Assembly (NCBI GenBank): GCA_027382625.1
Contig: JAJKFJ010022333.1
Coordinates: forward strand, 1 to 64,000
DNA length: 64,000 nt
Direction of reading: 5' to 3'
Source: Tetmemena sp. SeJ-2015
Taxonomy: Eukaryota; Ciliophora; Spirotrichea; Sporadotrichida; Oxytrichidae
A program made the position numbers and the translations under genes. Every line of letters starts with the position of its first letter. Within the stretch, counting starts at the first letter, position 1. The notes under the pieces were generated by a model that worked only from the letters and a program-made list of their open reading frames with translations, was not told the origin of the DNA and made no database searches. Positions 11,482-41,270 of this stretch are shown here, in pieces.

Positions 11482-11490
11482 GGAGAGTTC
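11482..11490 (+). other. Scrambling pointer GGAGAGTTC, 3' MnmE side
   Basis: The 9 bp word starts the downstream MnmE segment (Gly-Glu-Phe of the conserved GEFTRRA motif). The same word occurs on the minus strand at 40600-40608 at the end of the upstream segment. Confidence 0.85.
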
Positions 11491-12773
11491 ACTAGAAGAG
11501 CTTACATGAATGGAAAGTTAGATCTCGTCAAAGCGGAGGGTCTCAATGATTTGATAGAGGCAGAGTCGGAAGAGCAACTGAAACTTTCAATGCAGCAACT
11601 CTCAGGAAAGCACTCAAAACTAAATCTAAGGAAAATGAGATGTTTAATTAAGTTGAACTGTATGAAGAGTTAAGAGAGAAACTGATTCGGATGCTTGCTC
11701 ATGCAGAGGCTTATATAGACTTTGAAGCTGATGAAACTAACGACCTCAAGCCTGAGGTGTTTGTAGAATTGGGTAGGGAAACCGAAGTTCTAAGTCGGAG
11801 GATTGAAGGACTGATAAGAGATGCGTAGATAGGTGAAACTATAAGGGAAGGGTTTAGAATAGCAATCATGGGCCCTCCTAATGCAGGCAAAAGTACTCTC
11901 ATGAATAGACTCTCAAAGCGAAATGTAGCGATAGTCAGTGCCATTCCAGGAACAACAAGTTTACAAAGTCATTTATTTTTTTTACTTTCCTTATATTTTT
12001 TATAAGAGACTTAATTACTACTAACTTGAATCTATTTGGGTACAATGTGATTCTGACAGACACGGCAGGCTTAAGAGAAAATACAAATGACTTGATTGAG
12101 TAACAAGGCATATAGCTCACAAGAGATCAGATTTAAAGCAGTCATGGGATTATCTTTCTCCTGGATATCCAGGATATAGAAGAAGTGTAATCAAGTGATA
12201 AATCAGAGAAAAATAATAAAAGGAGATTCCAAATAATGAGGGATTTATAGTCGATCGAAAAAGAAATCAGTTCCATGTTATTTATATAGTATGTATTTAT
12301 ATGTAGATGAAGCCTAAAATTATCATAAATAAGCTAGATCTAGATCCAAGTTTATAAATAGAAGAAAGTAATGCAATATTGACAATAGATGGAAGAGAAT
12401 ACGAAGCGCTTCTTGTTCTTTTGAAAAATAAATCAACATGCAGGAATTTAATAAGGAGTTAGAGGGCATGATAAAAAGTTAACTTTAAAAGTTTCAAATA
12501 AATCCTAGTGGAGGCGCTTTTGAATACTCTGATCATTTTCTAATTTGAAGAAAATAAATATTTTCTATTCTTTTAATTACAAGGTAGAGACATAAAGAAC
12601 TTCTCTCAGAAACTTTACAATATTTAGAGAATTTTCGTAGAGACGATTTATATCCAGATATGTTAGTTGAAGAATTAAGAGGAGCTATAGATTGTATTGG
12701 GAGAATAACTGGAAGGGTTGAAGTGGAGGATGTTTTAGATGTTCTCTTCAGAGAATTTTGTATAGGTAAATGA
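11482..12773 (+). CDS. MnmE/GTPBP3: tRNA modification GTPase MnmE/GTPBP3 (MSS1), 3' part of a scrambled gene
   Basis: Mitochondrial MnmE works with MTO1/GidA to modify the wobble uridine of tRNAs. This part encodes [20 protein letters not shown], the central helical domain ([11 protein letters not shown]), and the GTPase domain. The GTPase motifs are GPPNAGKST (G1), IPGTTRDL (G2), [18 protein letters not shown] (G3) and INKLD (G4). The C-terminus is [20 protein letters not shown] through LFREFCIGK, ending in the family's conserved FC-I/V-GK, with TGA at 12771-12773. Eliminated segments at 11957-12003 (pointer AAG) and 12275-12306 (pointer ATG) restore G2 and the run into G4. Another break at about 12530-12595 is not resolved to the base. 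A base is missing near 11606 and the frame slips near 12395. The N-terminal domain is not here; it is at 40600-41270 on the other strand. Confidence 0.9.
11957..12003 (+). other. Internal eliminated sequence, 47 bp, pointer AAG
   Basis: AAG at 11957-11959 and 12004-12006. Removal gives PGTTRDLITT, the conserved G2 region of MnmE. Reading it as a GT-AG intron loses the conserved Arg-Asp and the frame. Confidence 0.85.
12275..12306 (+). other. Internal eliminated sequence, 32 bp, pointer ATG
   Basis: ATG at 12275-12277 and 12307-12309. Removal joins ...ISSM to [12 protein letters not shown] in frame and drops an in-frame TGA. Confidence 0.8.
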
Positions 12774-12858
12774 TTAATTAGATTTTCTCACTATCTTTAT
12801 TCATTTAAAAATTACCAATAGTATTTTAGTTGATCAGATAAGAAATAAATTGAAAAGT

Positions 12859-40490: not shown

Positions 40491-40599
40491 AGCATCCATA
40501 TCTAACATCTAATTTGGATTTTAGTTTCACGAATAAAAGAAAGCATCCAATTATTTATCGTTTACAATTTTAAATTTACCGATCTTAGACTTAGTTTGA

Positions 40600-40608
40600 G
40601 AACTCTCC
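40600..40608 (-). other. Scrambling pointer GGAGAGTTC, 5' MnmE side
   Basis: GAACTCTCC on the plus strand. It follows directly after the intron (40609-40665) that separates RQAEP from GEFTRRA, and ends the upstream MnmE segment. Partner at 11482-11490. Confidence 0.85.
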
Positions 40609-41270
40609 CTATGATAAGAAGTATGAATACAAAAGAAGAATGGTAGTTGTTAAGTTATATCTTACAGGTTCTGCTTGTCTGAAAGAAGGGAATTAGCTAA
40701 GAGTAGTGAGCAACTGTTACTTGACTGCATTTCCTCCATGGATCTAGAACTCTATCATGTCCTCTCCAGTGAACGAATGAGGCGCCTTGAAATACAGCAA
40801 TATCCCTTCGTCGATTTAAAATATTTGATCATTTTTTAAACTCTTCTCCTCTTTGATTATGGAGTTGTGTGGGTTTTGAGAGAAGATGTTATAGAATCTT
40901 CTGAAATGAGCATATCTGGGTTTTATCTAATCCTCTGTAGATTTATTAGGAGAGTCTTAAGTTTTTTATTCTTCCTTGCTTTGATATGGTAGTGGTTGAG
41001 TCAACTTCAGAGCTTCTTTTGCGGAATCACCTGTCAATCGAACTACCTTCAAACAATAAAATTTAAAATCAAATTGAAAAGTTTATCCAATAATTTTTTA
41101 ATATGTGAGAAGAATGTGATACTTACAGCGATAGCAGATTTTCCATAGCCCGTCGACAGCGCATAGATAGTGTCCTTGAACACAGATTGTGATGCAAACT
41201 ACCTTATACCGCCTAAATGGAGGGATGAAGATATAGAATAGGCTGATTTAAGCTTTTAAAAATATTTCAT
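40600..41270 (-). CDS. MnmE/GTPBP3: tRNA modification GTPase MnmE/GTPBP3 (MSS1), 5' part of a scrambled gene, inverted
   Basis: From ATG 41270: MKYFQKLKSAYSISSSLHLG, basic/Ser-rich and without acidic residues, a plausible mitochondrial targeting sequence. Then DTIYALSTGYGKSAIAV, an 80 nt intron (41047-41126, GTAAGT...TTGAAG), and VRLTGDSAKEAL. This is the MnmE N-terminal formyl-THF-binding domain (D-T-I-x-A-x-x-T-x-x-G-x-x-A-I-A-V-x-R-x-[ST]-G). Next come a Gln/Lys-rich insertion and DEGILLYFKAPHSFTGEDMI, EFQIHGGNAVKQQLLTTL, FRQAEP. A second intron (40609-40665, GTAAGA...CATAG, 57 nt) ends directly before pointer GGAGAGTTC. Joining there to 11482 gives [16 protein letters not shown], the family sequence. 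Starts 319 bp from, and divergent to, SUMO. Confidence 0.9.

What the first reader, a model, noticed from the sequence alone, without database searches (positions are those of the whole stretch)
11482..41270. Mitochondrial MnmE GTPase gene is scrambled: 5' half inverted about 29 kb from its 3' half
The N-terminal domain (presequence, DTIYALSTGYGKSAIAV, SFTGEDMIEFQIHGG, RQAEP) is on the minus strand at 41270-40600. GEFTRRA through the GTPase domain to FCIGK is on the plus strand at 11482-12773. Both ends carry GGAGAGTTC (40600-40608 minus; 11482-11490 plus). Joining at that 9 bp word gives AEP-GEFTRRA, exactly the family sequence, and leaves a canonical GT-AG intron intact. Seven other genes or gene parts lie between. 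The joint and frame are seen in the sequence; that it is resolved by programmed inversion during macronuclear development is inference from hypotrich biology.
Basis: partly seen in the sequence, partly recalled or inferred. Interest (0 to 1): 0.95.

Follow-up and report, generated by a model that had tools for sequence, protein, structure and literature searches.

The report
Scrambled ciliate gene, half inverted
In the germline DNA of a ciliate the gene for a tRNA-modifying enzyme (MnmE) lies in two pieces, 29 kb apart and facing opposite ways, with other genes between them; the cell very probably flips and rejoins the pieces when it builds its working nucleus, a process already known from related ciliates.

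Summary
The N-terminal part of MnmE is on minus 41270-40666, followed by a 57-bp GT-AG intron and GGAGAGTTC (40608-40600); the rest is on plus 11482-12773 and starts with the same 9 bp. The word occurs nowhere else in the window. Two hypotrich MnmE proteins map so that one residue ends at 40666 and the next starts at 11482. Joined, the pieces give a 571-aa MnmE that passes a curated cut-off which neither half reaches. In the 146-Mb assembly the N domain was found only here, the helical domain only here and on a second-haplotype contig, which also repeats 27 kb of the order. Inside the interval lies a second split gene (25543-27166 and 35825-40490, plus) sharing TATCAACCAT; relatives encode it as one protein. 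So the locus is nested. As a control, DNA polymerase alpha of the same genome is split and inverted around a shared 16-bp word in two contigs. Inverted scrambled genes and nested loci are published in large numbers (PMC10901763, PMC5940158), so this is a clean new member of a known kind. The macronuclear product was not seen.

The parts
40600..41270 (-). MDS 1 of MnmE: N-terminal extension and TrmE_N domain (exons 41270-41127 and 41046-40666), intron 40665-40609, end at the pointer
   Evidence: Sequence and translation; only TrmE_N match found in the assembly, 52 bits at 40666-40857; only DNA match found; relatives map to it
40609..40665 (-). 57-bp GT-AG intron, phase 0, whole on the N side; the pointer starts at the first base of the next exon
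40600..40608 (-). Pointer copy 1, GGAGAGTTC (encodes GEF)
11482..11490 (+). Pointer copy 2, GGAGAGTTC
   Evidence: conserved in the second haplotype at L004 4728
11482..12773 (+). MDSs for the rest of MnmE: GEFTRRA, helical domain, G domain, FCIGK, TGA stop
   Evidence: PF12631 matches at 11524-11622 and 11655-12761; translation; relatives map to it
11958..12004 (+). Putative non-scrambled IES, pointer AG; removal restores PGTTRD
   Evidence: both relatives stop at 11957 and resume at 12005
12275..12300 (+). Putative non-scrambled IES, pointer ATGT, 26 bp (borders set by frame alone)
12541..12573 (+). Putative non-scrambled IES, pointer TAATT, 33 bp
   Evidence: P0001 resumes at 12573
25543..27166 (+). 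N part of a second split gene: large membrane-protein gene, related to an S. lemnae protein with a PPC domain (PF04151)
   Evidence: P0121 residues 32-495 map to 25623-27166
27157..27166 (+). Pointer copy 1 of the second split gene, TATCAACCAT
   Evidence: Only two copies in the window
35825..35834 (+). Pointer copy 2 of the second split gene, TATCAACCAT; both copies also in C1675
35825..40490 (+). C part of the second split gene; same strand and order, 8.7 kb from its N part
   Evidence: P0121 residues 479-1844 map in order to 35784-40451; joint aligned
13247..15312 (-). Nested gene: arginyl-tRNA-protein transferase ATE1 (limits are those of the two open frames searched)
   Evidence: ATE_C 71.2 bits, ATE_N 52 bits
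17558..21201 (+). Nested gene(s): coiled-coil-like protein, sub-threshold formin FH2 similarity (may begin earlier)
   Evidence: Coding score; FH2 20.4 bits, below the cut-off of 34.8
22371..25185 (-). Nested gene: ataxin-10-like protein (limits approximate)
   Evidence: Atx10homo_assoc 44.3 bits at 22371-22634; coding score
27688..35740 (-). Innermost layer: minus-strand gene(s) inside the split membrane-protein gene, one with ankyrin repeats (limits and gene number approximate)
   Evidence: Ank_4 and Ank_2 at 32345-32776; coding score

Best explanation
This is germline (micronuclear) DNA of a hypotrich ciliate, and its single MnmE gene is scrambled there. MDS 1 (N-terminal domain, whole intron, pointer) is inverted and about 29 kb from the MDSs for the rest. 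During development of a new macronucleus, small IESs are removed at 2-5 bp direct repeats, MDS 1 and the rest are brought together in the right orientation, and they are joined at GGAGAGTTC so that one copy remains. Several other genes lying between are released onto their own chromosomes, one of them itself split around still other genes. The 57-bp intron is then spliced from RNA. The simplest history is one germline inversion of about 29.1 kb (11482-40599), with one break in a former IES of MnmE and the other in a gene spacer. Shown here: the two pieces, the shared word, the frame, the single copy in the assembly, the second haplotype for the C half, the nested second split gene, and the same signature in DNA polymerase alpha. 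Inferred: the DNA joining, its guidance by RNA from the old macronucleus (established for Oxytricha), and the inversion history.
For: Exact 9-bp repeat at the joint, only two copies in the window. Relatives map across the joint at 40666 and 11482. Joined protein: NF003661 MnmE 424.6 bits against a cut-off of 380; N part alone 96.2, C part alone 308.6. Six relatives run AE(P/Q)-GEF without a gap. TrmE_N found once in the assembly; MnmE_helical only here and on C1675. C1675 repeats the isolated C half and the order of window 9004-36406; C820 repeats 16661-30285 and C542 repeats 42980-59327. A second pointer-joined gene lies in the same interval. Control: DNA polymerase alpha pieces lie on opposite strands about 4 kb apart in C4161 and C1943 and share CTAACAGTATGTATGG at the joint. 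DDE_3 transposases: 150 of 150 scored from 921 candidates. Pointers average 4 bp at non-scrambled and 9 bp at scrambled junctions (PMC2394655).
Against: No macronuclear sequence or RNA was available. The stretch 36406-42980, which holds the N half, rests on one contig. The window's own C half has two 1-nt deletions.
Confidence: 0.93

Rival explanations
1. Assembly artefact: the N half belongs elsewhere and was joined wrongly to this contig.
For: Window 36406-42980 is covered by one contig only. The assembly has noisy repeat stretches, for example L011, which carries a 91-bp identical copy of window 39714-39804.
Against: The second split gene maps in order to 40451, with its stop at 40490, which leaves 109 bp before the pointer. 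Wherever the N half lies, it ends in GGAGAGTTC followed by non-MnmE DNA, and in two contigs the C half is preceded by another gene. So the gene is split in either case; only distance and orientation would change.
Confidence: 0.04
2. RNA trans-splicing joins two separately transcribed halves, without DNA rearrangement.
For: The joint coincides with an exon boundary.
Against: The intron is complete on the N side and followed by the pointer word, not split between the halves. The AG directly before the C half would give the wrong frame. The C half contains an insertion without GT (12541-12573) that needs removal at the DNA level.
Confidence: 0.02
3. The locus is a broken remnant: an inversion destroyed the gene and MnmE is lost or supplied otherwise.
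For: Two 1-nt deletions in the window's C half.
Against: The C1675 copy is open throughout after removal of three small insertions, with the invariant motifs intact. The exact shared word would have no reason to persist. No other MnmE domain was found in the assembly. Frame-breaking indels between the two contigs also occur in other predicted coding stretches (8 outside MnmE).
Confidence: 0.03

Closest known systems
Scrambled genes with inverted MDSs in hypotrichs (actin I of Stylonychia lemnae; DNA polymerase alpha)
   Same: Parts on opposite strands, short identical pointers at the joint, small non-scrambled IESs with shorter pointers in the same gene
   Different: Here one inversion over about 29 kb with whole genes between; actin I of S. 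lemnae is compact, with IESs of 15-64 bp (PMC2394655, passages)
Russian doll (nested) loci of Oxytricha trifallax and Tetmemena
   Same: MDSs of one chromosome enclose loci of others in layers; pointers bridge other genes
   Different: Depth here is two by gene prediction, against index 4 at most in Oxytricha (PMC5940158); no macronuclear map here
MnmE / TrmE (GTPBP3, MSS1; the last two names recalled) tRNA modification GTPase
   Same: Full domain order, PGTTRD motif, DTAGL, C-terminal FCIGK
   Different: Only its germline arrangement

Membership tests
Scrambled hypotrich germline gene (inversion type) | Gene parts out of order or orientation in germline DNA relative to the product | tested here: met
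   Minus 41270-40600 and plus 11482-12773
Scrambled hypotrich germline gene (inversion type) | Identical short repeat (pointer) at the end of one part and the start of the next | tested here: met
   GGAGAGTTC, two copies only
Scrambled hypotrich germline gene (inversion type) | Macronuclear chromosome with the parts joined and one pointer copy | not testable with these tools
   No macronuclear sequence of this species held; joined form not found in the assembly
Scrambled hypotrich germline gene (inversion type) | Germline context: IESs and germline-type transposons | tested here: met
   Three small IES-like insertions; DDE_3 transposases in the assembly and at window 167-742; DNA polymerase alpha in inverted pieces
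Russian doll (nested) locus | Loci of other chromosomes lie wholly between the parts of one gene, in layers | tested here: inconclusive
   ATE1, ataxin-10-like and the second split gene lie between; gene limits are predictions, not macronuclear maps
MnmE / TrmE GTPase | Passes a curated MnmE equivalog cut-off | tested here: met
   NF003661 424.6 bits against 380; TIGR00450 256.8 against 252.6, for the joined protein
MnmE / TrmE GTPase | Mitochondrial targeting | not tested
   A basic N-terminal extension is seen; no targeting predictor was run

The most novel reading that the evidence does not exclude
A snapshot of how scrambling starts: one germline inversion of about 29 kb, with a break inside a former small IES of a single-copy organelle gene and the other break in a gene spacer, tolerated at once because RNA-guided DNA joining restores the gene, although a further split gene and several whole genes lie between. 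If the unscrambled order survives in a close relative, this locus would show that a single large inversion can create a scrambled gene without the duplication-and-decay route proposed for odd-even patterns.
Probability: 0.4. Interest if true: 0.5.

Novelty: new member of a known kind. Interest (0 to 1): 0.36.

Why it matters
It shows that scrambled and nested architecture can be read from germline sequence alone: a split conserved protein with a shared word at the joint, found here for MnmE, for a nested membrane-protein gene and, as a control, for DNA polymerase alpha. The MnmE locus has one scrambled joint that one inversion would mend, so it is a handy test case for how far apart and across how many genes DNA joining can work, and for the origin of scrambling by inversion. 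The phenomenon itself is well established: 15.6% of O. trifallax genes and 13.6% of Tetmemena genes are scrambled (PMC9797194).

Tried and rejected
Trans-splicing: rejected because the intron is whole on the N side and the AG before the C half is out of frame. A second, unsplit MnmE: not found (in both all 3 candidates of the first look were scored). A joined copy in the assembly: 0 matches with up to 2 mismatches. Introns instead of IESs in the C half: the GT-AG choices at 11958-12004 lose the invariant RD of PGTTRD or run into TGA (reasoned), and 12541-12573 has no GT. The first N-side interruption (41126-41047) is ambiguous: it reads as a GT-AG intron and also as an IES with pointer GTA, with the same product.

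A simple dynamic-programming gene reader did badly on MnmE: it did not recover my hand-made IESs and removed coding sequence. I used it only for a searchable version of the second split gene, whose IES borders are not claimed; the mapping of relatives straight onto the window does not depend on it.

Species: not identified. Assembly size (146 Mb) and contig count (5213) match none of the three germline genomes tabulated in PMC9797194. The rRNA search did not complete. Frequency of such loci in this genome: not measured. Papers: the terms MnmE, ciliate, macronuclear gave one paper, a frameshifting review seen in the listing only; no paper on this locus was seen in the listings.

Full report
Observation. 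On the minus strand, ATG at 41270 opens an exon to 41127. An 80-bp interruption (41126-41047) follows, then an exon to 40666 that ends ...FRQAEP, a 57-bp GTAAG...TCATAG intron in phase 0 (40665-40609), and GGAGAGTTC at 40608-40600. After that word no MnmE sequence follows. On the plus strand MnmE sequence starts at 11482 with GGAGAGTTCACTAGAAGAGCT (GEFTRRA) and runs to the stop at 12773 with the C-terminal FCIGK. Reading uses TAA and TAG as Q and TGA as the only stop. GGAGAGTTC occurs twice in the window on both strands, 0.36 expected. An identical aligned 9-mer at two given places is expected at about 9e-6; with slack, 21 of 3000 random pairs of 30-bp stretches share a 9-mer.

Independent borders. 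Mapping the two closest relatives onto the window with tblastn puts P0001 residues 5-111 at 41049-40666 minus and residues 112 onwards at 11482 plus. P0002 residues 54-169 end at 40666 minus and residue 170 starts at 11482 plus. Both stop at 11957 and resume with the next residue at 12005.

The plus half is interrupted. The frame and the family sequence require removal of 11958-12004 (repeat AG; restores PGTTRD), 12275-12300 (ATGT) and 12541-12573 (TAATT). They carry 2-5 bp repeats, as expected for non-scrambled IESs. In the window's copy two 1-nt deletions break the frame near 11636 and 12417; the copy on contig C1675 is open. In 10.2 kb scored as coding between the two contigs there are 13 indels, 10 of them not multiples of 3 (8 outside MnmE), against 65 indels in 17.1 kb of other sequence. 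Whether the two deletions are errors or a damaged allele is open.

Identity. The joined protein (571 aa; N half from the window, C half from C1675) scores 424.6 bits on NF003661 (MnmE equivalog, cut-off 380) and 256.8 on TIGR00450 (cut-off 252.6). The N half alone scores 96.2 and the C half 308.6 on NF003661. The best relatives, of 120 listed out of 7945, are Stylonychia lemnae P0001 (58% over 92%) and P0002 (69% over 64%). In the alignment of six relatives the joint reads AEP-GEF or AEQ-GEF without a gap.

Copy number and assembly. In the 146,216,379-base assembly the helical domain (PF12631) was found only at the window and on C1675. TrmE_N was found only at 40666-40857 (3 of 3 candidates scored in each), and the N-half DNA only in the window contig. 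The joined sequence was not found. C1675 (29,541 bases) is collinear with window 9004-36406 in two pieces of 96.3 and 95.8% and repeats the isolated C half with the same upstream neighbour. C820 is collinear with 16661-30285 and C542 with 42980-59327, each in two pieces. Only 36406-42980 rests on one contig. The assembly is imperfect in repeats: L011 is a degenerate repeat array holding a 91-bp identical copy of window 39714-39804.

A second split gene in the interval. A large membrane-protein gene starts at 25543 (plus) and stops at TATCAACCAT 27157-27166. It resumes at TATCAACCAT 35825-35834 and ends at the TGA 40488-40490. The word occurs only at these two places in the window and at both places in C1675; in C820 the sequence diverges right after the first copy. 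A joined translation (1710 aa, IES borders approximate) was searched with residues 200-760, which span the joint: 3 proteins matched among 7679 candidates, all over 100% of that part: P0121 60%, S. lemnae P0122 45% and P0123 38%. The residues HDE at the joint are invariant in the four sequences. Mapped straight onto the window, P0121 residues 32-495 lie at 25623-27166 and residues 479-1844 in order at 35784-40451. So this gene is one protein of 1788-1849 aa in relatives and is split here by 8.7 kb that holds minus-strand coding sequence, one stretch with ankyrin repeats. It also ties 36406 to 40490 together and so supports the contig almost up to the MnmE N half.

Surroundings. Between the MnmE halves lie ATE1 (minus; ATE_C 71.2 and ATE_N 52 bits), a coiled-coil-like gene (plus), an ataxin-10-like gene (minus; 44.3 bits), and the split membrane-protein gene with its inner minus-strand gene(s). 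Outside lie an EF-hand-like gene (sub-threshold matches) whose stop at 11342-11344 is 137 bp before the pointer, and SUMO (plus, 41590-41880; Rad60-SLD 90.1 bits). The membrane-protein gene's stop at 40490 is 109 bp from the other pointer. Inverting 11482-40599 on paper would make MnmE contiguous, so one inversion explains the order; this history is inference.

Control in the same genome. Family-B polymerase pieces lie on opposite strands in C4161 (12884-12239 minus, 16380-16589 plus) and C1943 (142525-142951 plus, 138869-138675 minus). The C4161 pieces match DNA polymerase alpha best among solved structures, at successive chain positions (9mj5: 444-547, 565-626, then 618-677). The two strands share CTAACAGTATGTATGG (16 bp), encoding the end of the motif ANSMYG at the joint, in both contigs: 12270-12255 against 16399-16414, and 142920-142935 against 138865-138850. 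That DNA polymerase alpha is scrambled with inversion in hypotrichs is recalled. DDE_3 transposases are abundant: 150 of 150 scored from 921 candidates, one at window 167-742 (62.5 bits).

Mechanism. From the anatomy: small IESs are removed at short direct repeats; MDS 1 and the rest are joined in corrected orientation at the 9-bp pointer; the intron is removed from RNA. Shown here are the pieces, repeats, frame and copy number. The DNA joining and its guidance by RNA from the old macronucleus are taken from work on Oxytricha and Stylonychia (PMC9797194: outline, passages and sections 5, 7, 8, 11; PMC2394655: passages; PMC5940158: parts 1-2 of 4).

Comparison with what is known. Scrambled genes: 3613 in O. 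trifallax (15.6%) and 3371 in Tetmemena (13.6%) (PMC9797194). Of 5285 scrambled O. trifallax chromosomes 21.4% are inversions (PMC10901763, outline and section 19). Nested loci: 1301 of 15,811 chromosomes enclose others, 125 of them with index 2 (PMC5940158). Pointers average 4 bp at non-scrambled and 9 bp at scrambled junctions (PMC2394655); here they are 2-5 bp for the local insertions, 9 bp for the MnmE joint, 10 bp for the nested gene and 16 bp for polymerase alpha. Introns near or at pointers are also described (PMC9797194; PMC1805493, passages). So the kind is known; the locus is new to what I searched, and the species appears not to be in the protein collection.

Limits. No macronuclear DNA, RNA or reads were available, the species was not identified, gene limits in the interval are predictions, and the N half has one contig only.

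Noticed in passing
25543-27166 and 35825-40490 (+): A second gene is split across 8.7 kb with a 10-bp shared word TATCAACCAT; relatives encode it as one protein of 1788-1849 aa. Same strand and order, with minus-strand coding sequence inside.
   Followed up: yes
G000:C4161 12239-16589 (L034); G000:C1943 138675-142951 (L035): DNA polymerase alpha is split with parts on opposite strands about 4 kb apart and a shared 16-bp word CTAACAGTATGTATGG at the joint, in two contigs.
   Followed up: yes
11636 and 12417: The window copy of the MnmE C half has two 1-nt deletions against contig C1675: sequencing errors or a damaged allele.
   Followed up: partly
23623-23743: About 120 bp present in the window contig but absent from both other contigs C1675 and C820: a small insertion polymorphism.
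   Followed up: no
167-742 (-): DDE_3 transposase; a further, decayed-looking stretch near 8183-8422, and a transposase-like start of contig C1675, which departs from the window at 9004.
   Followed up: partly
L011 (G000:C3679): Degenerate array of a unit like TTTCTAAGAATGATTTAG with a 91-bp identical copy of window 39714-39804 inside: an assembly or polishing artefact, or a stray copy.
   Followed up: no
41047-41126 (-): The first interruption of the MnmE N half fits both a GT-AG intron and an IES with pointer GTA, giving the same product: a candidate for the intron-IES ambiguity discussed in PMC1805493.
   Followed up: no
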